Positions 14,132-29,436 of a stretch of 64,000 nucleotides of DNA are shown in pieces. How positions within the stretch are numbered: the first letter of the stretch is position 1; the number at the start of each line of letters is the position of its first letter. Made by a program: the position numbers and the translations under genes. The notes under the pieces were generated by a model. It ran no database searches and was not told where the DNA came from. It was given only the letters and a program-made list of their open reading frames with translations. The stretch lies in contig FN649728.1 of assembly GCA_000310025.1 (NCBI GenBank), positions 3,284,804 through 3,348,803 on the forward strand, read 5' to 3'. The stretch is from Ectocarpus siliculosus (Eukaryota > Sar > Phaeophyceae > Ectocarpales > Ectocarpaceae).

Positions 14132-14201
14132 AGTGTTAAGGAGGACCCGATTCGCAGGGTATCCGTCGATTGACTTTTACCAGAATCGGTACACCTTCGC
14201 A
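14132..14201. repeat. 70-bp direct repeat, outer copy
   Basis: Identical by eye to 14716-14785, 584 bases away. The other copy contains the last seven codons and stop of the reverse-transcriptase-like frame, so this copy is a detached duplicate of that gene's 3' end plus its flank. The 514 bases in between code nothing recognisable. Confidence 0.85.
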
Positions 14202-14715
14202 TATGGCGTCAGCTGGATACTGGTGGGGTGTTGCCCGGCCATTGTTGATTTAGAGCGGAAGAGTTGATGGTTGGTGTTGTTCCGCAGGGGCGGAAACTGA
14301 TTCCTGCCCCGTTGCCATGGTTGTTATTCGGCGGGAAGATTCGCCGTTTGGTATCCCATGGTTGGAGGGGAAAAGGAGTTGGGAAGATTCCTGTGGGGGA
14401 AATGATTGATGAATGGGTCTCTTTTCCCGTCAGGTCAGGGTACATTTCCGAAAACAGGGTACAGTTGCTGTAAAAAGTAGTCACGGCAGGGTACACCCTG
14501 CGCCTTTTCGGACGCACCGGGGTGAAATTGGGCGCTGACCAATGATATGAGTGCATTGACTGCTGTTAATGACTGTGTACCCAGGTGTGTCGCTTTTCGA
14601 CCAGGGTATACCCTGTTGTGTCGTTTTCCCTATAAAGAACCTTGTGACACTTCCATCGACTTACCCGTCCTGGCCACAAGAGGTTCCCAGTTGAGGGTAA
14701 ATTCTGTGGGTGGAG

Positions 14716-14785
14716 AGTGTTAAGGAGGACCCGATTCGCAGGGTATCCGTCGATTGACTTTTACCAGAATCGGTACACCTTCGCA
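14716..14785. repeat. 70-bp direct repeat, inner copy overlapping the RT end
   Basis: Second copy of the repeat at 14132-14201. It spans the 3' end of the minus-strand reverse-transcriptase frame (codons for AKVYRFW and stop). Confidence 0.85.
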
Positions 14786-15567
14786 GTAGGTACGTTGATA
14801 CCCACAATGTTTGCGGTCACTGGCGAGGTACGAAAAAATGTATACATGAAATTGTGTAAAGTATTACGTACAAGTCGACTAGAATAGTAACGTGCAAGCA
14901 TATCAGCCATCAGTCTGGCTGTGGCTGCTTGAAAAAATCGAATATCAGTACATGTAATCGCAAATCGGCATATTTGACAGTGTAACGTCGACATTTTACA
15001 CCTAGTAGATAACACTGTTTCCCAATGCGGAAATGCCCGATATTGCTTCAGCGTAGCCTTATGTTGGCGCTTATTATACATACCAATACAAGTCTTACCA
15101 GGAATATCTTGCCTTATTTGCATATCCAGAAAGTGTGCTGATTCCCCACACTGTTCTAGTGTAATGCGAACAGGATTTTCTATCTCATCACCATCCATAT
15201 CTAGCACCATCGTAGGGTACATACCACCATACTGATTACCCTCCTTATATATAATATCTTCAAATGTTGGTCCAGTCTGGTTACCATATCGCACTGTAAA
15301 AATGTCATCTATATACCGTTTTGTACCAATGCTATACTGCTCAATAAATTCAAATGGATACAACGGTGTAGTCCCAGCTTGTTTAGCAATTAAATACTCC
15401 TCCACCATTTCCTTCAAAAAATCAAATTTATTTATAAAATCTCCACATTCACAGCAAGGCATACATAAACCGGCATACCTCCGGAGCACAGCACAACAAA
15501 CCTCCAGGCTAACAGATCGATCCCTCGAGAAGGAACGGATCTCGGGCGATCTGCCGCAGCTCGGCAC
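14761..15567 (-). pseudogene. reverse transcriptase C-terminal part, possibly Penelope-like
   Basis: The frame contains KRYIDDIFTVRYG, the YxDD catalytic box of reverse transcriptases, then SAHFLDMQI, the FLDM-type motif that in Penelope-like and related RTs introduces the thumb. After it come ARYYSSRLVRNTLHNFMYTF and a stop at 14761. The N-terminal RT fingers are absent. The frame is cut on its 5' side exactly at the Ty3/gypsy insertion (LTR from 15571), and the target duplication ACTCT shows the older gene continued at 29432 and beyond. It does not look like LTR-type RT. A duplicated 70-bp 3' end recalls the partial tandem repeats of Penelope-like elements, but family placement is uncertain. 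Confidence 0.6.
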
Positions 15568-15570
15568 TCT

Positions 15571-15867
15571 TTTAAAGGAGGGGAAGCCGTGGGTGGTAGC
15601 TTGCTCCTAGAGATAGATGAAGGTAGGTTCTGTCGTTGACACGCTTGTCCACGATCACGTAGAGATGAGAAAGTTGCTTGTTATTGCTGAGAGACGATCA
15701 GCAAGGGTCTGAGGTGAAGTGGGGATCCAACTTCACCTCAGGGGGGTACGCAGACTAGACAAAATCCTAAGAGAGTAGGTGTCTGAAGGGTATACCTCCT
15801 GAGACCGACCCACATCCTATCAACAATAAGATGTACCCTATTTAAGCTAGCAGCCACACTCCTTAAC
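15571..15867 (-). repeat. 3' LTR of the Ty3 element
   Basis: About 297 bp. On the plus strand it starts TTTAAAGGAGGGG and ends CTCCTTAAC. A purine-rich stretch (AGGGTGGG on the minus strand) lies next to its inner edge, as a polypurine tract should. The LTR edge is ambiguous by up to 3 bases. Confidence 0.9.
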
Positions 15868-16879
15868 ACTAGCCCACCCTGAATATCATATATGCAGATT
15901 CTATACTCAAATCAATGCTCAACTCCTAAAAGCTATAACGAAGATTTTAGCTGACGATTGATGCTCATGAATCGAAGATATGACTCTTCACAAAACATCC
16001 AAAAAGGAGGGTGAGTTGTAGAAACATCCCGAATCAACCCCCACACCATCATTGAGACGAAAGATGGATGCGAACGGCCACGAGACAACACATCGACATC
16101 TCAATGACAACGCTCCTATCAATGAAGGGATAAGGCCAAGAAAAATATGTAGTGCTGCACAGCACGCTATCCGCAACAGACGACGGCAAGAGAAATAAAG
16201 TCAAAACCTAAACGCCACACACCACTCTTTTACGCGCACCCGCGCGTATAACAATGGGAGGAATGAGGGCGACTACCCGAGAGAGCCCCAAAATACTGCA
16301 ACAAAACTCAAAACCCAAGCAAATTTCCGAACGAATACGGCCTTTGATACTGGACGCGACGTAAAGGGGAAGATATCAACGCAACCAATCTAGGAAAGCG
16401 TCAAAGAAGGGCAGGAGAAATGAATGACAGGCGAACACACTGACAACAATTTCCAGCGTGTCAGAGAACTCAAACCGTATAGAGAGGCGGGCCACGGCAA
16501 GACCTAATGAAAACCAAGAATGTAAAGCATGAATGATCAACGTCTGAGAAGCGATCTGACGAACTTGCCCTGGCTCGCTGGCAAAGCACAACACAGGAAG
16601 GCTCAAATAACACAGAAAAATCGCAGAGATACACACAACAACACAACGACTCAAGGGCTCGACGATGATGAAGGCGTCGCCGGCAGGTAGCGATGACGGA
16701 GACGAAGTGGAACGAAGTGTGGATGACGACGAATGTCCACGGGAGAAGACGACGCCACGGGATGGAAGCCCGAAGTAACAAGCCTAGATGACACTTCGGC
16801 GACACGGTGGAGCTAAAAAAAAAAAAATGAGTTGGCGAAAGGCGAACCAAGGGAAACACGAGAAACTCGGTGTTTGCCT

Positions 16880-17068: not shown

Positions 17069-18070
17069 CTAGGAAGAGATATTGGGAACAGCCGACGGTA
17101 AGGAGTCAGTAATGGGAGGAGTGCGATCCCGGGCGTCGCCCAAAGGGCGCGAGCGATGTTTTTCTAAACACCACGATCCACAGACGGCGTCCAAGGCGGT
17201 GGAGTAGAGGTGCGCAGGCAGAGGGAGAACGCTGGGGCCCGGGTCATCCAGAAATCGAACGATGTACGAGCCGTCCTGATGAGCACCAATACGTCCGGTC
17301 CACCATAATCCGTCGCGGGCCTTGTACCACAGCCGCGCTCCTACTGGAAGGGGCGAAATGCTGAAGCGACGGAGCCAAGTCACGTGAAGCACAAGGTCAG
17401 CCCCAGGAGGCAAATAGCGTTCGCCACGATTCCGGGCGAGCTCCCGTTGTGCCGCGCGTGTCCGAGCCACTCGATACGTGCGGTTACCCTGCTTGCTTTG
17501 GCAGACCTCTCGAGACCAGTACAAGAGGATGTGTCGACGGAATTGATCGAGGTCGGACTCCCGTTCCCAAGAAGGAGTAGTCAGGCCTAGCCAATGCGTC
17601 TGGTACAGGACAGCGAGAACGCCGCTACGGCCCCGCACCAATTGGTGTCCCGAAATGTAGTCGACCTCGAGGCGCCCGACAGGCACCGACACATCATCTG
17701 CGGTGACGTGAAACGGTGGACATTTATCGCCGAAAGAGTGCAGGACATAACGCGAAAGCTCAGCGGGTAGAGATTGAGGCAGGTCGTCCGTCTCGTATGG
17801 ATTGCGACAGGGCTTGCAACGAAGGACAGATACGCGACATCGAGCAGCTGGGCCGGAAAGATCCGAAGGCAGGTCCAGGTAGAGGAGTTTACGCGCCAAC
17901 GGGCTTCCATCTGGGGTGGCGTTGGCCGAAGCGGGACCCACCGCAAGAACTTTGTAAGGCCCCGTCCAGGAAAGCGCGAATTTGGCCTTGAGCACCTGTT
18001 GATCCGTGTCCTTCCGCACACCCTGTCGAATTGTAGCAGCCGTGTTGTAGACCCAAGCCCACCCCGCCAA
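17069..18070 (-). CDS. Ty3 Pol C-terminus: chromodomain followed by a Tudor-like module
   Basis: Element-coded 333-residue frame at the 3' end of pol. Residues about 15-85 resemble the integrase C-terminal SH3-like part (FALSWTGPYKVLAVG). Residues about 129-186 match a chromodomain: VGRLEVDYISGHQLVRG, then TPSWERESDL, the W-E-x-x-x-x-L signature. Chromodomains steer integration to modified histones in chromoviruses. Residues about 242-290 (VGARLWYKARDGLWWTGRIG, then SYIVRFLDDPG) resemble a Tudor fold, another methyl-mark reader. The tail is Arg/Pro-rich. Tudor assignment is by pattern only. Confidence 0.7.
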   Translation of the reverse strand: MAGWAWVYNTAATIRQGVRKDTDQQVLKAKFALSWTGPYKVLAVGPASANATPDGSPLARKLLYLDLPSDLSGPAARCRVSVLRCKPCRNPYETDDLPQSLPAELSRYVLHSFGDKCPPFHVTADDVSVPVGRLEVDYISGHQLVRGRSGVLAVLYQTHWLGLTTPSWERESDLDQFRRHILLYWSREVCQSKQGNRTYRVARTRAAQRELARNRGERYLPPGADLVLHVTWLRRFSISPLPVGARLWYKARDGLWWTGRIGAHQDGSYIVRFLDDPGPSVLPLPAHLYSTALDAVCGSWCLEKHRSRPLGDARDRTPPITDSLPSAVPNISS

Positions 18071-20115
18071 CAGTAAATTGCGGGAGCTTGTGGATGGCGT
18101 CCCAGCAGGGATGAATTACGGCGTTCGACTCGCGAGATCTTCAGGGCGTTGTACTCACGGACCAGGTCGTAGGCCCGGCGCTGACGATCGACAGCCAAGT
18201 TGCAGTACTCGAGTTGGTCACGGGCTAAGCTTTGATGACCACCTACCGTTGGATGATCGAAGACCGAAAGCGGAAGCCGCGGAATGCGTCCGATATGGAT
18301 CTCGTTCGGCGCCAATCCAGTCGACTGGTTCACGGAATTGTTGTAGGCAAATTCGACGTGCGGGAGATGTACGTCCCAATCGTTTTGCTGTTCGTTGACG
18401 ACTACCGCAAGCATCTGAGCCATCGTGTGATTGACGCGTTCCGTGCCGCCGTTGGTTTGCGGGTGGTAGGAGCTGGTGGTGACTTTCTTGATTTTCATCA
18501 CCTCGTAGATCGCCATGGAGAGCTTCGAGCAGAAATGCAGTCCGTTGTCCGACAATAACGTAGTCGGACATCCCCACTTGGTCATGTACTGGTTGACGAA
18601 GATGTGAGCCGTCCCTTTCGCCGTAAATTCCGCCGCTGTAACCGCGAACATGTCGGCTCTCCGGCTGAAACGGTCTGTGAACAACAAAATGTAGGAGTTG
18701 CCCTTGGCAGTCACGGGCAGGGGTCCGAAGAAGTCGACGCCGACGACCGTACCAGGCCCCTGTGGCAATGGCATAGCGATGACGGGCCACCGAGCGGTTT
18801 GACGCGAAGTCTTGCGAGCTTGACACACCAAACACGCTCGAAGCCACCAACGCACGGAACGATCCAGACCAATCCACCAGTAAAAACGCTCAAGCAGACG
18901 TTGTGTACGATGAACACCGAGATGGAAGGACGCGGCGGTATGGCAGGCATGAAGGACCCACGGACGCATCAGCATGGGCACGTAGACACGGGGCACACCA
19001 GTATCCGGTAGACGAGTGGTCCTGCCGCCAGAGCGCCCGATCGGCGATGGCGCCGGTTTATGTACGAGGAGGGTGACGTTCTCATCGGTCGTGTGCAGCC
19101 TGGTTTTCGCCGCCAACGCAAGGACATCGTCCAACCGAGGGGAGCGGAGCGGGGCACTAAGGGTGAGCAAGTCAGAAGGGGGGGGGGAGGGAGAGCCACG
19201 AGACAGAAAGCGCATAGCCACCACGCATTCGCTCTCCCGCTGTTGTTCCCTAGCCCAGTCCACAGTGCCGAAGCTCTGAACGCAAGCTCGCAAATGTGAG
19301 GGGTCCAAGTCAGTCGGCTCCAACCCAGAGACAAGCGATTCCACGGAAGAGGCTGGAGAACGAGGGGCCTCAACGAGTGGTGAAGTTGCAGACCGCGGTG
19401 TCACCTCAGGAGGAGGCATTGGGCGGGGCGAAGTCCCAGGCGAAACCTGGATAGAGGGGCAAAACCGAGGATGCAGCGCGCGCCGATGCCGGCGAAGGCA
19501 CCTGTGGCGCAGAGGCAGTCGACGAAAACGCCGACGTTGGCGTCGCAGATGACGGCAGGGGACGCGTGCCGGTCCGGATGGTCTTGTTTGTCGAGCGGGA
19601 CCTGCTAGGACGACGGGCAGTGGACGATGCCCGAGGGACGATGGTAGCCCGCGGCTGGCGTCCGAAATAGGTGGGACCGGTGACGGTGCCTCCAGAAGCA
19701 GCGGTGGTCTTGGCCCGAGTTCGTGAAGAAATGAGCGGTCCCCGCTCCGGAAGCGAAGACAGGACGTGCACATATCTATTCGCCAAAGACGCGGCCGGAG
19801 ACATTCCGCGGGACGTAGCCGGAGCCAAACAGGAAACAGGCACCGGAGACGCGAAAACATGTGAGACCACGAAGACTCCCGAAGACCTCCGAGAATCTTG
19901 ATAATCAATCGGTGAGTCCGATCGAACATCCAGCAGGCGCGGGTGATGACGGCGGAAATCCCCAAAATCGGGTGGCTGTAGCGCTGGGGGTGAAAAGACA
20001 CCCGCCGAGCAGGGAGGGCGGAGCCCACCCAAACCGACCTCCGGCGTAGACGACGAGTGATAGTTGAGTCCACAAGCCCGAATGAGGAAGACACCAGCGT
20101 GATCGACACCATCAA
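17587..20115 (-). CDS. Ty3 integrase block
   Basis: In this frame the integrase region is residues about 355-650. An HHCC zinc finger (HACHTAASFHLGVHR ... CLVCQARK) is followed by the rve core: GVDFFGPLP (first Asp), LLSDNGLHF (second Asp) and HPQTNGGTERVNHTM (Glu block). All three acidic catalytic residues are visible. The enzyme inserts the element cDNA. The N-terminal third overlaps the RT/RNase H frame and the stretch after about residue 650 is in a different frame from the chromodomain block, so neither need be translated as drawn. Confidence 0.8.
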   Translation of the reverse strand: MMVSITLVSSSFGLVDSTITRRLRRRSVWVGSALPARRVSFHPQRYSHPILGISAVITRACWMFDRTHRLIIKILGGLRESSWSHMFSRLRCLFPVWLRLRPAECLRPRLWRIDMCTSCLRFRSGDRSFLHELGPRPPLLLEAPSPVPPISDASRGLPSSLGHRPLPVVLAGPARQTRPSGPARVPCRHLRRQRRRFRRLPLRHRCLRRHRRALHPRFCPSIQVSPGTSPRPMPPPEVTPRSATSPLVEAPRSPASSVESLVSGLEPTDLDPSHLRACVQSFGTVDWAREQQRESECVVAMRFLSRGSPSPPPSDLLTLSAPLRSPRLDDVLALAAKTRLHTTDENVTLLVHKPAPSPIGRSGGRTTRLPDTGVPRVYVPMLMRPWVLHACHTAASFHLGVHRTQRLLERFYWWIGLDRSVRWWLRACLVCQARKTSRQTARWPVIAMPLPQGPGTVVGVDFFGPLPVTAKGNSYILLFTDRFSRRADMFAVTAAEFTAKGTAHIFVNQYMTKWGCPTTLLSDNGLHFCSKLSMAIYEVMKIKKVTTSSYHPQTNGGTERVNHTMAQMLAVVVNEQQNDWDVHLPHVEFAYNNSVNQSTGLAPNEIHIGRIPRLPLSVFDHPTVGGHQSLARDQLEYCNLAVDRQRRAYDLVREYNALKISRVERRNSSLLGRHPQAPAIYCWRGGLGSTTRLLQFDRVCGRTRINRCSRPNSRFPGRGLTKFLRWVPLRPTPPQMEARWRVNSSTWTCLRIFPAQLLDVAYLSFVASPVAIHTRRTTCLNLYPLSFRVMSCTLSAINVHRFTSPQMMCRCLSGASRSTTFRDTNWCGAVAAFSLSCTRRIG

Positions 20116-23100
20116 TGCAATCGGGGCCGGTTGTGTCCGTGTCTTGTGCTGGTAAAGGCAGCCGCGAAAGGAAATCCGCGTTGCCGTTTGCCGAACCTTT
20201 CCGATATTTCAGGGTGTAGGTGAAGTTGGACAGGAATTCGAGCCATCGTTGTACCCTGGCGTTGTGTTCTCCAACCTTTCCAATGCTCTCTAAGGCTTTG
20301 TGATCTGAATAGATGATGAACTTGGTTGACCACAAATAGCCCCGAAGACGCTTAATGGCCCAAACAATGCCACCAGCTTCCAGATCCAGAACAGTCCAGT
20401 TCCGCTCCGCCGGAAGAGTAGCGCGGCTGATGTACACAATGGGTCTCACCGAGCCATCGAGTTGTTCTTGTTCCAGGGAGGCTCCAAAGCCGTCGATGCA
20501 CGCGTCGGAGCACAAACGGAGAGGACGGCTGTTGTCCTCGACCGCAGCCCAATCCGGGAAGACCAAAATCGGGGGACGCGCGAGTTCGCTCAACAACGTT
20601 TTGACAACCTTGACCATGCCCGGGGTGTACTTGAAGGGGACGCCTTGTTTGAGAAGAGAGTTGAGAGGCCGCACCTTGGTGGCGAGATTCTGAAGGAATT
20701 TCCGGTAGTAGCTGAGACCACCGAGGAGGCTCCTAAGCTGCTTAACATTCGTCGGCGGCGGCATGTGCGTGAGCGCCCTAACCTTGACGCCATCAGGGCT
20801 AACCCCAGCCGGGGAGATGGTGTGACCGAGGAAATTGGCGTGGGTGGCGCCGACACGAGCCTTCCCTGGAGACAGCTTGAGGTTGTACTGGCGCAGCCGT
20901 TTGAAAAACTCGATCATGTTGAGCACGTGTCCCAGAGGTTCCTCATCGAAACAGATAACATCATCCAGATAGGCAAGCACACGCTCCAGACCGTGCACCA
21001 CTCTGTTGATGACCTTGACGAACCAAGACGGGCTGGCGTTGGCTCCTTGCGGCATCCGAAGCCATTCGAACAACTGCGTGGGAGTGCAAAAGGCGGTGAG
21101 CGGGACAGTGTCTTCGTCACAAACGATCTGGTGGAAGGCCGAATTGAGATCGAAGATGGAGAACACTTTCCCGGTGTAGAGAGAATCCAAGATACCGTCC
21201 ACCCGAGGGAGAGGTTGTCCATCCAAGTCCACCAGGGCGTTGAGTCGTTTGTAGTTGACGGTGATGCGAACCGATCCGTCCTTCTTGGGGATGACGACCA
21301 GGGGAGAAGCCCAGGGAGAAGTGGAATGCTGAATGAGCCCTGCCGCCAAATACTGGTCCAAGACGGCATCCACTTTCTTCTGCATTAACGGGTTAATACG
21401 ATACGGGCGTGATGCGACGGGCTTCGTCCCTGCGGGGACAGAAAGAGTGAATGGCATGACGGTGCAGGAACCAAAATCGGTTTTCGAAGTAGAGAACACG
21501 TCGGAATACTCAACAAGGGCGTCGGCCAAACGATCAATAGCCTCCGGTGTCCATCCCGGGTTGTGTAGATCGAAAGCGATGTCGTGCATATGTGCGGGCA
21601 GCCTAGTCCACAATCGCAGAAAACTGGAGCGCTGGGCCTCGGAGAAGCGGTCAAGCAGTTCTTGTGGAGGCGGCTTCGGAGGAGGTGGGGCGGAGGCTGG
21701 GTCCGGAGAGCGGCGAGTCCCGGACTTGGGGCCAACGGCGTTGACCCGATGCGGTGATGTAGAGGACGGGGGGGCGGTGGGAGTCGAAGATGGAGCCGCC
21801 TTCAGGGTTTCTACCGGTACTCGTAATAGCGGTGCAGCAGACACGCCAATAACGTCGCCCGGCTCCAATTCGGCACAACCTGCAAGGGGAATACGCTGAA
21901 GACCATTGGAAACAAATGCATCGGGGAACGAAAGTGCACCCACTTCAGGTCGGAACGATACGAGATATTCGCCGATCAGCGCAGGCATGCCCGAAGAACG
22001 GACGAGGTCCACCTCAACAAGGGCCGGCTCCGGCCCCAAGGAAATGCCCGAGCTCCCTGCATATTTGAGGTGAAACGAAGAGGCAGGAGCGTCGTCGTGC
22101 GTAGCGTAAACACACGCGCCAGCGGTGAAACGTGGAGAGAGCGTGAGCTCGCCCATAACCCGGCCGTCCGGTCCAGGGTGGGGGAGGGTGGTGAACACTC
22201 GAGAGTTGAACCGCATCCAGCTATCGCGACCCAGAAGCACGGCGTGCCCCATGGCGGCATCTGGAACAACGCAGGCCCAGACCGCCAACGAAGCGGTAGC
22301 TCGAGCTCCATGAAGAAAATTAACGGTGAGACGAACTGACCGAGTGGTCACAAGGGCGGGTCCATCACCAAACCCACCCCAACGACGAGAGGGCGAAACA
22401 CGAACGCTGCCAGCTGTCAAGGCTCCAGCAGCTATCATGGCGGTGACCACGGAGTCGGACACAAAAGACGCAGGAGATCCAGAGTCCAGCAGCGCCACTC
22501 GCGCCAGTTGAGAAGTGGCTGTAGGTCCTCCATGCAGCAGGACCCGGGTGGTGTAAGAGTCCGAGTCCAACAGGAGCGTGCCGCCGACCAGGTCGGGCCC
22601 GTGTTCCAGAAGAGGAGGTTGGTCTGCACAAGCGGAGGTCGAGGCCACCAGATGAACACCAGGAGCATGGTCCCCCGGAGCGTCCAAATGGAGACAGGCT
22701 GGGTCTTCACCCCGGTCCTCCCGTGACGACGAACCGGCCGCGGTAGCAACCTCGTGGATGCGTCTACGGCCATGTGGAGGAGGCTGCGAAATGGGAGGTG
22801 CGGGAGAAGTGGAGGCGGGGAGAGCTTCGCCAGACAGGGGATGATCACGCAAAAGGCGCCGAACTTCCATCAAAGCTTTTCCCAACAAGTTTTTACCGCT
22901 AGACGCCCACTTGGATGAAACGCTAGCCTCCGGAAAGCATGCAGACATGCCGATACCCCAAACACGATCGAAGGGGCTAGCTTCCGCAAGGAGGCGGGTA
23001 CCCGTCTCCAGTAGATGTTGTTTCATGTCGCGGTTTTGAGCGAATTTGGCATACGACCCCGTAAGCACGATCTCTTCTCGACGACGCTCCCATTCAGCAT

Positions 23101-23425
23101 AGTCAAAAGGACGGACGTTACGACCCAAGTACTTGTGTGTCTTAGGATCTGGTGCAGCCATGATTTTGTCATACGACGTCATATCCCCAAACAACTTCGC
23201 TTTTTCAGACATCATAAATTGCTCACCACATGAATAACGTACCCCCAGTACGTCAAAAGCCGAGGGAGTCCATTGCGAGAACACAGACGGAGGTTTCCAG
23301 AAGAGGAGGACGTCATCCGAAGCGTACTCGCATTTGTCATCAAACGGCGGAGCCGGTGCAGGGCGCAGAGGCAAAGAGCGGGCACCAGGCACGGGCGGGG
23401 GTGGGTCAAGTGGACGGGTCCTCAT
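19406..23425 (-). CDS. Ty3 Pol: NADAR domain, protease, reverse transcriptase, RNase H (1339 aa frame)
   Basis: Residues about 31-195 are a NADAR (YbiA/COG3236-like) domain: FSQWTPSAFDVLGV, EQFMMSEKAKLFGD, LGRNVRPFDYAEWERRREEI, EASPFDRVWGIGMS and GKNLLGKALMEVRRLL match the family in order. About residue 310-325 is the retropepsin motif LLDSGSPASFV. Reverse transcriptase follows (ITVNYKRLNALVDLDGQPLP, LAYLDDVICF with its YxDD box, then YYRKFLQNLATKVRPL), and RNase H (LCSDACIDGFGASLEQEQLD, YSDHKALESIGK). The last 220 residues are Ser/Pro-rich and overlap the integrase frame. NADAR enzymes cleave N-glycosidic bonds in riboflavin intermediates or ADP-ribosylated DNA; a role in a retroelement is unknown to me. 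Confidence 0.88.
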   Translation of the reverse strand: MRTRPLDPPPPVPGARSLPLRPAPAPPFDDKCEYASDDVLLFWKPPSVFSQWTPSAFDVLGVRYSCGEQFMMSEKAKLFGDMTSYDKIMAAPDPKTHKYLGRNVRPFDYAEWERRREEIVLTGSYAKFAQNRDMKQHLLETGTRLLAEASPFDRVWGIGMSACFPEASVSSKWASSGKNLLGKALMEVRRLLRDHPLSGEALPASTSPAPPISQPPPHGRRRIHEVATAAGSSSREDRGEDPACLHLDAPGDHAPGVHLVASTSACADQPPLLEHGPDLVGGTLLLDSDSYTTRVLLHGGPTATSQLARVALLDSGSPASFVSDSVVTAMIAAGALTAGSVRVSPSRRWGGFGDGPALVTTRSVRLTVNFLHGARATASLAVWACVVPDAAMGHAVLLGRDSWMRFNSRVFTTLPHPGPDGRVMGELTLSPRFTAGACVYATHDDAPASSFHLKYAGSSGISLGPEPALVEVDLVRSSGMPALIGEYLVSFRPEVGALSFPDAFVSNGLQRIPLAGCAELEPGDVIGVSAAPLLRVPVETLKAAPSSTPTAPPSSTSPHRVNAVGPKSGTRRSPDPASAPPPPKPPPQELLDRFSEAQRSSFLRLWTRLPAHMHDIAFDLHNPGWTPEAIDRLADALVEYSDVFSTSKTDFGSCTVMPFTLSVPAGTKPVASRPYRINPLMQKKVDAVLDQYLAAGLIQHSTSPWASPLVVIPKKDGSVRITVNYKRLNALVDLDGQPLPRVDGILDSLYTGKVFSIFDLNSAFHQIVCDEDTVPLTAFCTPTQLFEWLRMPQGANASPSWFVKVINRVVHGLERVLAYLDDVICFDEEPLGHVLNMIEFFKRLRQYNLKLSPGKARVGATHANFLGHTISPAGVSPDGVKVRALTHMPPPTNVKQLRSLLGGLSYYRKFLQNLATKVRPLNSLLKQGVPFKYTPGMVKVVKTLLSELARPPILVFPDWAAVEDNSRPLRLCSDACIDGFGASLEQEQLDGSVRPIVYISRATLPAERNWTVLDLEAGGIVWAIKRLRGYLWSTKFIIYSDHKALESIGKVGEHNARVQRWLEFLSNFTYTLKYRKGSANGNADFLSRLPLPAQDTDTTGPDCIDGVDHAGVFLIRACGLNYHSSSTPEVGLGGLRPPCSAGVFSPPALQPPDFGDFRRHHPRLLDVRSDSPIDYQDSRRSSGVFVVSHVFASPVPVSCLAPATSRGMSPAASLANRYVHVLSSLPERGPLISSRTRAKTTAASGGTVTGPTYFGRQPRATIVPRASSTARRPSRSRSTNKTIRTGTRPLPSSATPTSAFSSTASAPQVPSPASARAASSVLPLYPGFAWDFAPPNASS

Positions 23426-24150
23426 CTCCGACGGGGAGGACCCAGAAAGCGAGGGAGGAGCGGGCGAAGTCGCTCCGGTCCATGATAGGGCGGCCTACGG
23501 GCGGCGGCTCCGGCGAGGTCAATGTTAGCAGAGGCCATTCGGCTATTAGAGACCTGTTCGTTAAGAGAAGTCTTTCCTGCGGCAGACGGATATGTGTGAA
23601 TGGACGCAGGGCGCTCTGGACTACTCCCCCGTGACAAAGGAGCCGAACCTTCCACAGAACGGTGGGCACTACCATCCGATCCCGATGGCAGTGGTGCAGT
23701 CAGCACGTTGTGGGCAGCAGAGGAAGACGCATTCGTATCAGGTGCTGCCACACGGGGGCAGCGGACGGTCGAAGACAACGAAAGCTGCGAAAGAGAAGGA
23801 GAATCGACGGGGTCCCCGACGAGTGTAGAAGAAGGCTCGTGTGCTATCCGAGAAGAGGCCCGGCTGACAATACCAGGAGAGTCTTGGCGAACAGTAGTAG
23901 ACGAGGTTCTTGTTCCTTCTGTAACCCGAGACGGCGAGGTGAGCAGGGGTGAACCACTCGACGTCTTACCTCCCTGTCGCCCACACCACAAAGGTTGTGC
24001 CGGAGTGGGTTTGTCATGTCCAATACCAGCAGACGATGAGGTGGGTGACGAGGAGGCGGGCCGAGAAACTAGATGTGATTTGGGGGCGTGGGGAGTATCC
24101 AAAGAAGTAGGCTGTACACGAACATCCTGGGAGACTCCAAAAGGGTGCAC
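23422..24150 (-). CDS. Ser/Pro-rich linker frame between gag and pol of the Ty3 element
   Basis: A 242-residue open frame, low complexity (Ser, Pro, Arg), between the end of gag and the NADAR block. It may be the N-terminal extension of pol, or simply an open frame over coding DNA. No domain is recognised. Confidence 0.35.
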   Translation of the reverse strand: MHPFGVSQDVRVQPTSLDTPHAPKSHLVSRPASSSPTSSSAGIGHDKPTPAQPLWCGRQGGKTSSGSPLLTSPSRVTEGTRTSSTTVRQDSPGIVSRASSRIAHEPSSTLVGDPVDSPSLSQLSLSSTVRCPRVAAPDTNASSSAAHNVLTAPLPSGSDGSAHRSVEGSAPLSRGSSPERPASIHTYPSAAGKTSLNEQVSNSRMASANIDLAGAAARRPPYHGPERLRPLLPRFLGPPRRR

Positions 24151-24198: not shown

Positions 24199-25653
24199 TC
24201 ATTTCTTACCCTTCCAGCCCCTCTTGGCCGAAGTGGAAGTCTCCGATGAGGATTCTGTGTGCGAGGACTGTTTCATGTCCGATGTGTCAGATGAACGGCG
24301 GGCGCGTCCCGAGGAGTGAGCACGGGGTGGGTTGCGTCCTGTAGGTCGTCTATACGAGGTCATGCGCTTTTTCCACCGACTCCAAAGTGTGGGATCTTTT
24401 TCCATGCAGAGCTTGATATCATTGTTAAGCAGGCCTGTGGCGTTAATGAACCCACGAGTACAAGATTTGAAGGAGTGGTCTTCCCCTAAGCAGTTGAGGC
24501 ACTTGCCCTTGTACAGCCGAAGCGCGTTGCGGCGGTCTTCAGCCGAGACCAAGGGGGTGAACAATGGCGGATCATTCTTGGTTAGAGCCATCTCACTAGC
24601 GACGTTGTATACCTCTGGAAAGTGTCCTTGCAGCGGCCAGTCGCTGTAGTGCAACAGAAAAGGGTCTCGATCATAATAAGGTAGAGGGTCAACACTCATC
24701 ACCGCAGCCGAAGAACCTGGACTCCACGAAGGGGTCACCGACGACCGCAACGCCGAAGAAGCTACAGCACGCGAAACAGCAGACGAACTCCGAGCATTCG
24801 TGGAAGACACCGAAAAAAAATCGTCACCATGTACCGCCGGCGTGTGCGCGAATGCCCGCTTGTCCAACACATCCCACATATCGTCCAAACACGAAGCATG
24901 TCGCCCAAAAGGGGCTTCCATGGAGAGCTGCTCATCCTTGTACACCTGTCCAGACACTACGGGAAACTGCTTCAACATGGAGTCTCGAACAGCTATCTGC
25001 ACTTGTGCATCCGAAGGCTTGAACGCGTGATGAGAAACCATGACAGTCATGGCCAGAGCCTTATAGCGACGAATGTATTCTCCGTACGTCTCGCCGGTGG
25101 ACACGCCAAAACTACGAAGGCGATCGATCCCCGAGCTCTTGTCTTGAGTGTCCCAGGCGGCCGCCAATTTCTGGATAAAGAACGCGTACGTCGAGGGCCC
25201 GGCCGGTTCCTTGCGCAGATGGTTTTCTACCTGTTGGAAAGTGGCATCAAGAAATTCCAGCGTGGCACGGTTGGTGGTTTGACCTTCAACGACAGCAGCA
25301 CGAACACGTTTGCGCAACAACGGAAGCCATCCTGCGACCCAGGTGGAGGAAGCGAAAGTCTGCTTGCGTTTGACGTCGCTTTTGTTGAGGATCTCGGTGA
25401 CCACGCCCTTGCAGCTAGACGCGAAACGAGCAAATTCATCAGGATCAGAACCAAGGGGCAAGCGTGTGACACTATCAAGTTGTTCCGGCTTCAGCTTGTC
25501 CATCTTGTCTTGAATGCGGATGGTGTCGGCCTCCGCTGCAGCGGCGTCCGCAGCGTCCAAAGCCTCCTGCCTCGTCCTCGCCCCCGTGGAAGACAAAGGC
25601 AAGCTAGCATCATCCTGAGGCAACGGCGATGTCGCGTTGGCCGGTGACGCCAT
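24199..25653 (-). CDS. Ty3 Gag (484 aa) with CCHC zinc knuckle
   Basis: The capsid-like helical region spans residues about 45-300 (LDSVTRLPLGSDPDEFARFA, YGEYIRRYKALAMTVMVSHH). It is followed by a Ser-rich linker and, at residue about 400, a knuckle CLNCLGEDHSFKSC (CX2CX4HX4C). The C-terminus is Ser/Arg/Lys-rich. It would form the particle and bind element RNA. It starts 30 bases after the end of the 890-aa frame and is a single open frame. Confidence 0.8.
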   Translation of the reverse strand: MASPANATSPLPQDDASLPLSSTGARTRQEALDAADAAAAEADTIRIQDKMDKLKPEQLDSVTRLPLGSDPDEFARFASSCKGVVTEILNKSDVKRKQTFASSTWVAGWLPLLRKRVRAAVVEGQTTNRATLEFLDATFQQVENHLRKEPAGPSTYAFFIQKLAAAWDTQDKSSGIDRLRSFGVSTGETYGEYIRRYKALAMTVMVSHHAFKPSDAQVQIAVRDSMLKQFPVVSGQVYKDEQLSMEAPFGRHASCLDDMWDVLDKRAFAHTPAVHGDDFFSVSSTNARSSSAVSRAVASSALRSSVTPSWSPGSSAAVMSVDPLPYYDRDPFLLHYSDWPLQGHFPEVYNVASEMALTKNDPPLFTPLVSAEDRRNALRLYKGKCLNCLGEDHSFKSCTRGFINATGLLNNDIKLCMEKDPTLWSRWKKRMTSYRRPTGRNPPRAHSSGRARRSSDTSDMKQSSHTESSSETSTSAKRGWKGKK

Positions 25654-25682: not shown

Positions 25683-28355
25683 TCAGGATAGACGTACGCG
25701 GGAGGGGGGGGGCACCACCAAAGGCTGTTGTAGCAGAGCTGGGGCGGTCGACGCTGATGACACCACCAAAGGCTGTTGCGGCAGAGCTGGGGCGGCCGGC
25801 GCTGATGACGATGACACTGCCGTGGCCCTGGCAGCTGCCTCATCGTGAACCTCGTACCCTGAACGAACTCCCGAGGAACTCGAAGCGTGGTCTTGCAATG
25901 GTGCCAAATGCGCCCGTGACGAAAAGGGTGGGGCAGAAGGTGGCATGCTAGGGGCGTTCGAGGGCACAGAAGGTGGTACATTCGAGTCGGCAGCAGCATC
26001 CACAACTTGGCCAGGCGTTTGCGCGCGCAGGAGAGTGAGCACTTGTTCCAACAGCATTTCAGTACGGGAAGCCGAAGTCGAGGCGTGTGATGCAGCATTG
26101 CGTGGTGAACCAACCCGTTCGTCCAAAAGCAAGGAAGATGTGGGCTGATCTACCACGGTGTGTGTAGGGGCATGGCTTTTAACCGCGGCGGAATGTTCAC
26201 GAAGTTGCATGTTGGCAAGTTTGAACGCCAAAGTAGACACGGGCGGCGGTCCTACATCAGCGGGGGGGAGCAAAACCGGTGGCGAAGAACAGAGTGAACC
26301 ATCTTCTGAGGCAGTCTTACGTTCCCCCAACAGCCCAGAACTACGAAAATCACACCGATCATACTGCACTTGCCTGCGACCCCGACCTGACTTCCGTCGC
26401 CCTTTGCCCCCTCGACCGCTGTCCGAGCTGGTCGCCCTGCTGTTGCCCCCGCTCCTCGTCGGGCTCCGGCTGCGGCTACGCCTACGCGAAGGCGTGTTGC
26501 TCCCGCGGCGGTCGCTGCTCCGGCTGCGACCACGCCGAGACGAAGGTGCGTGACGTGGCTGGCGGTCGGTGCTCCGGCTCCGGCTCCGGCTCTCGCGGTG
26601 TCGACGCTTGGACGAAGATTCCGCGTACCCCCGCCCGCCATCTTCAACACCCGGCCCTCGCGAAGTGCGCTCGGCCGTCCCGCTCTTGGCCGTGGGGGCT
26701 TGATCACCCCAACGGCTCCTCCGGCTGGTGGAGGCAGGAGCCGCCGACAGACTGTAGTCCTTGGTCCCTCCGGAACCATGCGCACGGCTTGCAGAATCCT
26801 GCTGTGGGAGCTGCAGATCATGCTGAAAATCGTCGTTGGTTGCAGTACGAGCTAGCGGCAACCGAATTCCCCCATTGTGCACCACCACCGCGGTTCCCTG
26901 GGGACCCTCGGTGAAGGAAGCCCTACGGAGAGCAGACACTAACCGAAACACACTCTGTCGTAAGGACGGTTCTAGCTGGTCGAGGAACGGACTCGTTACA
27001 AGATGTGCAAAACCAAGGTCTGTATAAGAGTCAGGACAGCGGTCACGCACGATGTGTTGGAGGCCAGCCCACGCAAAAAGGGCACTAGTTCGGTCAGCAT
27101 CATGGAAGGTGATCACATCTGTGGGCGTGGAAAGGGGGCGGGACAGGAACGCTGTGTCTTCTGCGTGAAACCTGTACTCCTCGGCTTCGTCGTCTGACGC
27201 GCCGTCGGCATCCCCGGCCGGCCCACCCAGCGTCACAGAAAACTGGGGAGCAGCAGCCACTTCCGGTGCCGCCTGGGGCGTGGGAGGGGGCACGACACGA
27301 CGACGGGCGGGTCGCGAAAGCAAAGTTGAAGCTTGCGGCCGGTGCCCGAGGTCCTCCAGCCGTGATCGGAGCGCCCCTTGCTTCGCCCTAGCAGCCCGGA
27401 CATACTCCTCGCGCGCCGCTAGTTCCGCTTTCTTCTGTGCAGCAGCCCGAGCAGCCTCGCGCTCCTCCTCCTGCTTCCTCGCAGCCTCCGCCAGAGCAGC
27501 CTCACGCTCCTCCTCCTGCCTCCTCGCAGCTTCCGCCAGAGCAGCCTCACGCTCCTTCGCCTGCTTCCTCGCAGCCTCCGCCAGAGCAGCCTGACGCTCC
27601 TCCTCCTGCTTCCTCGCATCATCCGCCAGAGCAGCCTCACGCTCCTCCAGCAGCTTCCGCTCTTCCGCCGCCGCTACCTCGCTAGCCAGACCGCGGTGCC
27701 ACATCTCGGTCAATTCTTGAAAGGCGGCGAACTCATCTTGCGACAAGTGCATCACCATGTCTTCCTGCGGGAGCGAGAAAGGGCGAGCGCAAATGGGGGA
27801 ACCAGGAGACGAACGAGCTGCCCTGACCACGTCGCGCAGGGAGATCCGTCCAGCGGTGTACGCTTGTTCCAGGTCCGCCGGATCCGCCGTGGCGATGTTG
27901 TACCTCAGGTCATCAGCTGCGGACGCGCCTGGAGTGGACTCGCTCTCGTCGCCCGTCCCGGCCCCTGCAAGCAGCTCCGCGGTGGACGGCTCGCCCTCGG
28001 CCTCGTAATCGAGGATTTCCTCATTGCCGTCCATCAGTTCCACATATCCGCTGGACATGGTGTTCTCTTTTTTCAAAAAGACAGGGCCAGAGGAAGGGCA
28101 GCTACTATCGATTTTTACAAGTGCAGAACGGCCAGCAACAGTAGATGTGTCACCCCCAACCGCTGTTGCGACAGCAGAACCGATTGCAGCGGAAACAGTA
28201 AAGCGGGGCGTAATCGCGGTAGAAGCAAACCGAGGTCCATGCGAAAAACGGAGATACCCACAGGACAGCAACGCCCGGCGATAAAAGCTTGATGCACACG
28301 AGGTTGAAGCGGATCCAACCAAGCAGAAAAGGCGTCCAAAAGCACACCATGCCAC
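25683..28355 (-). CDS. extra 5' protein of the Ty3 element: coiled coil and RS-rich region
   Basis: An 890-residue open frame between the 5' LTR and gag; the natural start may be Met 100 (MSSGYVELMDGNEEILDYEA). Residues about 205-330 form a heptad-like coiled coil built of near-tandem units (EEEREAALAEAARKQ). A globular-looking stretch follows (TDVITFHDADRTSALFAWAG). Residues about 590-680 are Arg/Ser-dipeptide-rich (SRSRSRSTDRQ, RRRSRSRSPTRSG), like SR splicing proteins. Another helical stretch (MLLEQVLTLLRAQTPG) and a Pro/Ala/Ser tail end it. No known retroelement protein is recognised. RS domains bind RNA and splicing factors, so an RNA-handling role is a guess. Confidence 0.6.
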   Translation of the reverse strand: MAWCAFGRLFCLVGSASTSCASSFYRRALLSCGYLRFSHGPRFASTAITPRFTVSAAIGSAVATAVGGDTSTVAGRSALVKIDSSCPSSGPVFLKKENTMSSGYVELMDGNEEILDYEAEGEPSTAELLAGAGTGDESESTPGASAADDLRYNIATADPADLEQAYTAGRISLRDVVRAARSSPGSPICARPFSLPQEDMVMHLSQDEFAAFQELTEMWHRGLASEVAAAEERKLLEEREAALADDARKQEEERQAALAEAARKQAKEREAALAEAARRQEEEREAALAEAARKQEEEREAARAAAQKKAELAAREEYVRAARAKQGALRSRLEDLGHRPQASTLLSRPARRRVVPPPTPQAAPEVAAAPQFSVTLGGPAGDADGASDDEAEEYRFHAEDTAFLSRPLSTPTDVITFHDADRTSALFAWAGLQHIVRDRCPDSYTDLGFAHLVTSPFLDQLEPSLRQSVFRLVSALRRASFTEGPQGTAVVVHNGGIRLPLARTATNDDFQHDLQLPQQDSASRAHGSGGTKDYSLSAAPASTSRRSRWGDQAPTAKSGTAERTSRGPGVEDGGRGYAESSSKRRHRESRSRSRSTDRQPRHAPSSRRGRSRSSDRRGSNTPSRRRSRSRSPTRSGGNSRATSSDSGRGGKGRRKSGRGRRQVQYDRCDFRSSGLLGERKTASEDGSLCSSPPVLLPPADVGPPPVSTLAFKLANMQLREHSAAVKSHAPTHTVVDQPTSSLLLDERVGSPRNAASHASTSASRTEMLLEQVLTLLRAQTPGQVVDAAADSNVPPSVPSNAPSMPPSAPPFSSRAHLAPLQDHASSSSGVRSGYEVHDEAAARATAVSSSSAPAAPALPQQPLVVSSASTAPALLQQPLVVPPPSRVRLS

Positions 28356-28978: not shown

Positions 28979-29134
28979 GAGAAGAAGCAGAGAAGGCTAA
29001 GTCTAGAATCTCGTGGGTGGTGAGACCAAATAACAAACAACCCCGTGATTGTGAAGAAAGCGTGACAACAACACACAGCAGTGTGGAGGCCGCGTCCAGC
29101 ACCCGCTTACCGTGTAATGCCAGCTGACGCCAAG

Positions 29135-29431
29135 TTTAAAGGAGGGGAAGCCGTGGGTGGTAGCTTGCTCCTAGAGATAGATGAAGGTAGGTTCTGTCGT
29201 TGACACGCTTGTCCACGATCACGTAGAGATGAGAAAGTTGCTTGTTATTGCTGAGAGACGATCAGCAAGGGTCTGAGGTGAAGTGGGGATCCAACTTCAC
29301 CTCAGGGGGGTACGCAGACTAGACAAAATCCTAAGAGAGTAGGTGTCTGAAGGGTATACCTCCTGAGACCGACCCACATCCTATCAACAATAAGATGTAC
29401 CCTATTTAAGCTAGCAGCCACACTCCTTAAC
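29135..29431 (-). repeat. 5' LTR of the Ty3 element
   Basis: Matches 15571-15867 without visible difference. On the minus strand it is followed after two bases by TGGCGTCAGCTGGCATTA. This is the right place for a tRNA primer-binding site, but I could not match it to a particular tRNA. Confidence 0.9.
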
Positions 29432-29436
29432 ACTCT

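What the first reader, a model, noticed from the sequence alone, without database searches (positions are those of the whole stretch)
22840..23330. NADAR (YbiA-like) domain built into a Ty3/gypsy pol, ahead of the protease
Seen: the pol frame opens with a complete run of NADAR family motifs in order (FSQW.PS.F, EQFMMSEKAKLF, LGR.V..FD...W..RR..I, EASP.DR.WGIG, GKNLLGKALM.VR), followed by retropepsin, RT and RNase H in one open frame of 1339 codons. Known: YbiA/COG3236 proteins cleave N-glycosidic bonds of riboflavin intermediates, and some NADAR proteins remove ADP-ribose from DNA as partners of DarT toxins. Inference: the element acquired an enzyme that could reverse ADP-ribosylation of its nucleic acid, or counter a host NAD-dependent defence. 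The LTRs are identical, so the domain has been carried by a recently active lineage. I do not know whether this fusion has been reported.
Basis: partly seen in the sequence, partly recalled or inferred. Interest (0 to 1): 0.88.

Follow-up and report, generated by a model that had tools for sequence, protein, structure and literature searches.

The report
NADAR enzyme domain in algal retrotransposon
A family of jumping genes in a brown alga carries a well-preserved enzyme domain that probably removes ADP-ribose tags from nucleic acids; this fusion was published in 2025, but its closest relative may be the alga's own gene rather than a bacterial one.

Summary

The fusion is already published (PMC12477816, 2025), with possible bacterial origin suggested. 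Two results go further: the nearest relatives found include an algal nuclear gene in four separated blocks (clade support 91/81, not decisive), and a second, RT-like protein family also carries NADAR (P0021 plus 11). Correction: in 12 of 17 copies of its subfamily about 296 codons precede NADAR in frame; the window's pol frame is broken on both sides.

The parts
29135..29432 (-). 5' LTR (element reads on the minus strand)
   Evidence: 298 of 298 bases identical to the other LTR; begins TGTTAAGG on the minus strand
15571..15868 (-). 3' LTR
15567..15570 (.). target-site duplication CTCT, left
   Evidence: flanks; matches 29433-29436
29433..29436 (.). target-site duplication CTCT, right
29120..29132 (-). 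primer-binding-site-like TGGCGTCAGCTGG, 2 bases inside the 5' LTR
   Evidence: the same 13-mer occurs 61 times in the genome against 2 for the reversed control; no tRNA matched to it
25683..28355 (-). 890-aa ORF of unknown function between LTR and gag (Glu/Ala/Arg-rich repeats, Ser/Arg-rich middle)
   Evidence: no Pfam hit up to E 10
24199..25653 (-). gag-like ORF, 484 aa, CCHC zinc knuckle (CLNCLGEDHSFKSC, residues 385-398)
   Evidence: no gag family named by Pfam
23422..24150 (-). 242-aa Ser/Pro-rich ORF just upstream of the NADAR ORF; in 12 of 17 copies of the subfamily the frame upstream of NADAR is open for 296-297 codons
22847..23302 (-). NADAR domain (PF08719); named residues E68, K75, K98, R102, F107, W112, R116, E148, D153, W156 (ORF numbering)
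22136..22615 (-). retropepsin-like protease region, DSG at residues 314-316
   Evidence: motif; matching piece downstream of NADAR in 60 of 60 fetched copies; no Pfam name
20816..21292 (-). reverse transcriptase (RVT_1), YLDD at residue 819
20222..20536 (-). RNase H (RT_RNaseH)
18808..18981 (-). integrase zinc-binding domain (H2C2), in another frame in this copy
   Evidence: E 2.5e-14
18460..18759 (-). integrase core (rve), same frame as H2C2
   Evidence: E 6.6e-07, 30 bits, just under the curated cut-off of 32.6
17513..17668 (-). chromodomain-like stretch, in a third frame in this copy
   Evidence: PF00385 E 0.071, below cut-off

Best explanation
This is a Ty3/gypsy (Metaviridae) retrotransposon of Ectocarpus whose Pol polyprotein carries a YbiA-type NADAR hydrolase ahead of the protease. 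Shown: the domain, its regular place in the lineage, conservation of the ADP-ribose-binding residues, and purifying selection in three of five subfamilies. Inferred: it is made as part of Gag-Pol, packaged in the particle, possibly cut free by the protease next to it, and hydrolyses ADP-ribose from guanine bases of the element's RNA and/or cDNA. That would keep the template and product readable for reverse transcription and integration, much as dUTPase carried beside the protease by some retroviruses keeps uracil out of cDNA (analogy recalled). The domain most likely shares its stem with a brown-algal nuclear NADAR gene, so host capture is favoured over a direct bacterial transfer.
Against: No biochemistry or expression for any retroelement NADAR. 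D86 is not kept, although it contacts only the adenine-side ribose. Subfamily 1 (15 copies) and subfamily 4 (2 copies) show no significant depletion of coding change; their pairwise pN/pS are 0.58 and 0.42. The copies tested were chosen by domain score and had no stop (55 of 61), which favours conservation. A second linker of pol (residues 540-640) is as constrained (pN/pS 0.17) as the protease region (0.19), so constraint is not confined to named domains. No guanine-directed ADP-ribosyltransferase was identified in the host: DarT no match, four short PARP matches, ART and Tpt1 no match (the ART control rang nowhere). In the second RT-like family several members have lost catalytic residues, so catalysis need not always be the retained function. 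Host origin: the alternative grouping with Myxococcota is not rejected (AU p 0.158), and the retro clade itself is weak (85/38).
Confidence: 0.55

Rival explanations
1. The domain clears small NAD-derived molecules (free ADP-ribose derivatives, host signals, or reactive riboflavin-pathway intermediates) rather than tags on the element's nucleic acid.
For: Bacterial and plant NADARs remove reactive riboflavin-pathway intermediates (stated in PMC11543638 and PMC9303266); PMC9503650 posits that viral NADARs, of phages above all, might prefer soluble ADPr derivatives (passages).
Against: Lodging in Pol beside PR and RT would place it in the particle with the nucleic acid (inference). PMC9503650 also argues that NADARs of eukaryotic RNA viruses, often embedded in polyproteins, primarily target macromolecular ADP-ribosylation.
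Confidence: 0.2
2. The domain is an RNA-binding or RNA-processing module for the transposition intermediate, in which base de-ADP-ribosylation is not the point.
For: Processing of the RNA intermediate is suggested in PMC12477816. Nematode SNA-3 needs its NADAR domains for SL trans-splicing and contacts the cap-binding CBC-ARS2 complex (PMC9303266, passages). A capping enzyme fused to NADAR exists (P0022; P0024 by precomputed Pfam). Some members of the second RT-like family have lost catalytic residues.
Against: In the Gypsy family the ADP-ribose site is kept almost without exception, which RNA binding alone would not require.
Confidence: 0.17
3. Origin: the element took the domain directly from bacteria, and the algal gene is a separate arrival or a domesticated copy.
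For: PMC12477816 found almost exclusively bacterial blastp hits outside Ectocarpus. Four Myxococcota NADARs are 49-54% identical (L062-L065), overlapping the algal range, and grouping the retro domains with them without the host gene is not rejected (p 0.158).
Against: Brown-algal proteins are closer in the best trees (supports for that grouping 78 to 93) and reach 51-60% identity; matches come from Ectocarpus, Pylaiella and Scytosiphon, and in this genome the gene is in four separated blocks.
Confidence: 0.3
4. A passenger domain without function.
For: Subfamilies 1 and 4 show no significant purifying signal.
Against: Subfamilies at 56-60% amino-acid identity to the window's keep the site; synonymous change between subfamilies is near or past saturation while dN is 0.27-0.48; subfamilies 0, 2 and 3 are constrained.
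Confidence: 0.04

Closest known systems
NADAR-bearing Gypsy lineage of Ectocarpus, e.g. Gypsy-12_Ec32 (PMC12477816, Genome Biol 2025; section 5 part 1 and passages seen)
   Same: [quoted passage not shown] chromodomain on the integrase in the Gypsy-12 example; same genus (inferred for the window).
   Different: No sequence of Gypsy-12_Ec32 was at hand to compare. That paper suggests possible horizontal acquisition, its hits being mostly bacterial; here an algal gene is among the nearest relatives found.
Tx1 LINEs of Crassostrea gigas with NADAR in ORF1 (reported in PMC12477816)
   Same: A retrotransposon carrying NADAR.
   Different: Non-LTR element, domain in ORF1, described there as divergent hits; not examined here.
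P0021 family: NADAR + RT/RNase H-like proteins (P0021, P0146-P0156)
   Same: NADAR ahead of RT- and RNase H-like sequence.
   Different: RVT_1 absent or below the cut-off in all 8 members scanned; no protease or integrase named in them; NADAR outside the Gypsy clade in the trees; active-site residues lost in several.
Phytophthora nicotianae NADAR (PDB 8bau; PMC11543638, passages and section 12 seen)
   Different: Stand-alone protein; 33% identical in the structural alignment; D86 differs.
Myxobacterial YbiA-YarT toxin-antitoxin pair (PMC11125620; abstract, section 2.2 and figure legends seen)
   Same: YbiA-type NADAR active on guanine-ADPr; the nearest bacterial relatives found here are also Myxococcota.
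   Different: I listed ORFs of two such loci (L062, L064) but tested no neighbour as a YarT; no such partner seen in the element.

Membership tests
NADAR superfamily (PF08719) | Profile match over the curated cut-off, full length | tested here: met
   155 bits against 35.1, profile 2-163 of 163
NADAR superfamily (PF08719) | NADAR fold | tested here: met
   [not shown]
YbiA subfamily | Glutamate at the E125 position (D in BC4488 type, H in phage type, per PMC11543638) | tested here: met
   E148 of the ORF; E in 55 of 55 stop-free domains
Guanine-ADPr hydrolase | Hydrolysis of ADP-ribosyl-guanine in DNA or RNA | not testable with these tools
   Residues needed for it are present; no assay
DarT1-NADAR toxin-antitoxin (DarTG1) | Linked DarT toxin | tested here: not met
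   No PF14487 match in the whole genome at E 0.001; control rang in 1 of 14
Ty3/gypsy (Metaviridae) | LTRs, gag, and pol in the order PR-RT-RH-IN | tested here: met
   NADAR-RT-RH-IN in one protein in relative P0003; PR by motif only, gag by its knuckle and place
Published NADAR-Gypsy lineage (Gypsy-12_Ec32) | Sequence match to the published family | not tested
   124 of 150 RT matches have NADAR 0.7-4.5 kb upstream

The most novel reading that the evidence does not exclude
Guanine ADP-ribosylation is a real, unrecognised barrier to retrotransposition in marine eukaryotes, and unrelated retroelements have answered it repeatedly by taking up NADAR: the Gypsy lineage of brown algae from the host's own gene, a second RT-like family (P0021 and kin), and the published oyster Tx1 LINEs.
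Probability: 0.22. Interest if true: 0.82.

Novelty: already known. Interest (0 to 1): 0.45.

Why it matters
The fusion is in print, so the first-order finding is not new. What would matter is the reason: a conserved ADP-ribose hydrolase inside Pol implies a host or cellular modification that harms the element's RNA or cDNA. Base ADP-ribosylation is known as a toxin activity and a bacterial phage defence; evidence that it limits retroelements in eukaryotes would open a new arms-race axis. The domain is small, predicted with high confidence and testable in vitro.

Tried and rejected
Chance match or frame artefact: rejected (E 2.7e-45; fold match; wrong-frame control). One-off insertion in one copy: rejected. 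A DarT-like partner: no match. RT linked to the closest bacterial and viral NADARs: none with the Gypsy RT profile in loci L062-L221, which reach only 1.5 kb (bacterial) or 4 kb (viral) to each side. Capping-NADAR fusions in viral contigs: no match for P0022 patterns, so its organism stays unknown. The PARG-ARH-NADAR fusions (P0008 and kin) looked like the nearest non-retro relatives, where only long proteins were candidates; the trees put them further away. IQ-TREE's codon model ran but printed no omega, so I used counts instead. One clade of Gypsy plus P0021-type NADARs was not rejected (AU p 0.433), nor was the P0021-type group shown as one clade in that tree (p 0.44), so independent uptake is not proven by the NADAR tree; it rests on the different RT-like sequence. 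ART and Tpt1 searches of the genome were empty; the ART control rang nowhere, so that says nothing. tRNA genes in the window: none, so the primer site was not matched to a tRNA. Paper searches for a report other than PMC12477816; none seen in the listings. No search was made for the P0021 family by name, since it has none.
Full report
1. What is there. The window is part of contig C3 of a 189-Mb genome. Its NADAR region is 94% and 90% identical to two proteins named Ectocarpus sp. CCAP 1310/34 (P0001, P0002), so I take it as an Ectocarpus genome; that name is inferred. An LTR element lies on the minus strand from 29432 down to 15571. Its LTRs are identical over 298 of 298 bases, flanked by CTCT on both sides, with TGGCGTCAGCTGG two bases inside the 5' LTR. 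In reading order it holds an 890-aa ORF of unknown nature, a 484-aa gag-like ORF with a CCHC knuckle, a 242-aa Ser/Pro-rich ORF, the 1339-aa ORF of the finding, and integrase and chromodomain-like pieces in other frames.

3. Is it a property of the lineage? The genome gave 150 scored matches out of 230 candidates. I fetched 60 of the 62 best-scoring (L001-L060); of the other two, one is the window itself and one (C53:43461) I did not ask for. A piece matching the window's protease region lies downstream on the same strand in 60 of 60. RT lies downstream in 57 of 60: 38 of the 40 with long flanks and 19 of the 20 with short flanks; the misses are L009, L026 and L050, and L050 holds a run of N. 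In the other direction, of 150 scored RT matches (of 464 candidates), 124 have a NADAR match 0.7-4.5 kb upstream on the same strand: 124 of 147 at 53% identity or more, 0 of 3 at 48%. The 23 closer misses include partial RT matches and may include copies beyond the scored NADAR lists; I did not inspect them.

4. Selection. Of 61 domains (60 plus window), 55 were full and stop-free; L001, L012, L042, L045, L047 and L059 were dropped for a stop. They fall into subfamilies of 17, 15, 13, 8 and 2; the window is in the first. Pairwise pN/pS within them is 0.13, 0.58, 0.26, 0.10 and 0.42. Between subfamilies synonymous differences are near or past saturation (pS 0.75-0.88) while dN is 0.27-0.48. Across all 55, ten of the 13 named positions are invariant and identical to 8bau, K50 is K in 54 and Q in one, the Y84 position is always F, and the D86 position varies. 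Counting distinct variants, subfamily 0 has S 19, N 10 (P 1.4e-6, 8.3e-6 and 3.8e-5 for ts/tv weights 1, 2 and 4); subfamily 2 S 27, N 30 (1.1e-4 to 2.7e-3); subfamily 3 S 12, N 6 (1.5e-4 to 1.2e-3); subfamily 1 S 10, N 23 and subfamily 4 S 4, N 6 are not significant. The same columns in the wrong frames give no P below 0.05. Within subfamily 0, over the 13 to 18 copies usable per piece, pN/pS is 0.13 for NADAR, 0.08 RT, 0.14 RNase H, 0.19 protease region, 0.39 for the linker beside NADAR, 0.35 for the tail before NADAR, but 0.17 for the linker at 540-640. Shared ancestry makes variants not fully independent, and the copies were picked by score, so the P values are indicative.

5. Anatomy correction. 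In 12 of 17 subfamily-0 domains (window included) 296-297 codons are open in frame before the domain; subfamilies 1, 3 and 4 have up to 379, 440 and 353, subfamily 2 up to 331. The relative P0005 carries such a segment fused to NADAR in one protein, while P0003 begins about 35 residues before the domain. The window has 60 codons, and its frame also stops where some sisters go on. Thus this copy's pol is interrupted on both sides, and 'the pol frame opens with NADAR' describes this copy, not the subfamily. The published wording, 'N-terminal region of Pol', fits.

6. Where the domain came from. The search with the domain alone found proteins of 209-252 aa (P0028 Ectocarpus sp., P0029 E. fasciculatus, P0030 of unnamed origin, P0032 Pylaiella littoralis, P0033 Scytosiphon promiscuus) at 51-60% identity. 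In this genome a gene at C24:2125100-2127300 matches the NADAR query in four separated blocks, which I read as exons. In the list of 150 scored matches to P0028 (266 candidates) its two pieces are the only ones above 80% identity. Four of the five proteins have a Cys-rich N-terminal stretch that Pfam does not name in the two scanned (P0028, P0032). In the careful tree of 59 rows, retro (26) plus host (7) form a clade at 91/81, retro alone 85/38, with four Myxococcota (L062-L065) and five other proteins just outside; two Corallococcus sequences fall further out. Labels: of the 26 'retro' rows 13 are genome copies and five (P0001, P0002, P0003, P0005, P0006) carry RT; the other eight (P0026, P0034, P0046, P0052, P0054, P0067, P0068, P0074) are short and were called retro by likeness or by place in earlier trees (P0068 shows a protease-like motif by eye); of the seven 'host' rows P0051 is an unnamed metagenomic protein. 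Quick trees agree with lower support. In an earlier careful tree of 56 rows retro plus host was again a clade (93/80), but the retro rows were not one clade within it (one clade in 26% of bootstrap trees). Holding retro with the Myxococcota group and excluding the host costs 3.4 log units, p 0.158. The groups were named after earlier trees were seen. So host ancestry is favoured, not proven; the published suggestion of horizontal transfer (PMC12477816) remains possible. One retro-like NADAR fragment is from Pylaiella (P0067).

7. A second RT-like family with NADAR. P0021 (924 aa) and 11 relatives (P0146-P0156, 812-1383 aa, 38-51% identical to P0021) carry NADAR ahead of RT/RNase H-like sequence. 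I scanned eight of the twelve: NADAR is over its cut-off in 8 of 8; RVT_1 is found only below its cut-off (6 of 8, best E 2.6e-5); RT_RNaseH is over its cut-off in 2 of 8; no protease or integrase is named. The RT reading is strengthened by P0159, a NADAR-less protein with a clear RVT_1 (1.4e-14) that matches P0021 at E 7e-26 and 28% identity. They look DIRS/YR-like to me (recalled, not tested). In several members NADAR residues are lost (E43, E125 or D130). PMC12477816 does not mention them in what I saw of it. AU does not reject a common clade with the Gypsy domains (p 0.433).

8. How it most likely works. NADARs were the only hydrolase family found to remove ADP-ribose from guanosine bases in RNA, and they were inactive on phosphate ends (PMC11833690, passages); guanine de-ADP-ribosylation of DNA is reported as conserved in eukaryotic NADARs (PMC11543638). 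Placed in Pol, the domain would enter the particle with RT and the RNA (inference). Cleaning guanine-ADPr from template or cDNA is therefore the best reading. Missing link: no host guanine-ART is known here; the genome shows only four short PARP matches.

9. Novelty. PMC12477816 (2025) reports the fusion in Ectocarpus and a NADAR in oyster Tx1 LINEs. The finding itself is already known. Additions here are the reciprocal linkage counts, the residue and selection tests, the algal-gene kinship, and the second RT-like family.

Noticed in passing
window 25683-28355 (-): An 890-aa ORF with Glu/Ala/Arg-rich 45-nt repeats and a Ser/Arg-rich stretch sits between the 5' LTR and gag; no Pfam match up to E 10. 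By eye, part of it resembles a stretch of P0002, so it seems to belong to the element.
   Followed up: partly
window 17069-17710 (-): C-terminal to integrase: a weak chromodomain (E 0.071) followed by a second reader-like stretch (GARLWYKARDGLWWTGRI...), by eye also in P0003; Tudor/Agenet-like by eye, not matched by Pfam.
   Followed up: partly
window 14132-14216 and 14716-14785 (+): An identical 70-base repeat beginning AGTGTTAAGGAGG (like the LTR start), one copy followed by TGGCGTCAGCTGG at 14204, in the opposite orientation to the element: perhaps remains of a related element beside this one.
   Followed up: no
P0008-P0020, P0023: Proteins of mostly about 880 aa joining microbial-type PARG, ADP-ribosylglycohydrolase and NADAR (P0012: ARH + NADAR + macro), i.e. 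several ADP-ribose erasers in one chain (precomputed Pfam; P0008 scanned).
   Followed up: partly
P0022, P0024: mRNA capping enzyme and cap methyltransferase fused to a C-terminal NADAR (1165-1167 aa), organism unknown; links NADAR to RNA 5' ends.
   Followed up: partly
L062 (Nannocystis pusilla) 738-1247 and 1462-1989: Two NADAR-like genes of different types side by side: one E. coli YbiA-like by eye, one like the algal/retro type.
   Followed up: no
G000:C3:3913787 and C489:435177: Open frames reported as 10887 and 6365 aa around NADAR matches; the first (L050) contains a run of N, so these lengths are probably artefacts.
   Followed up: partly
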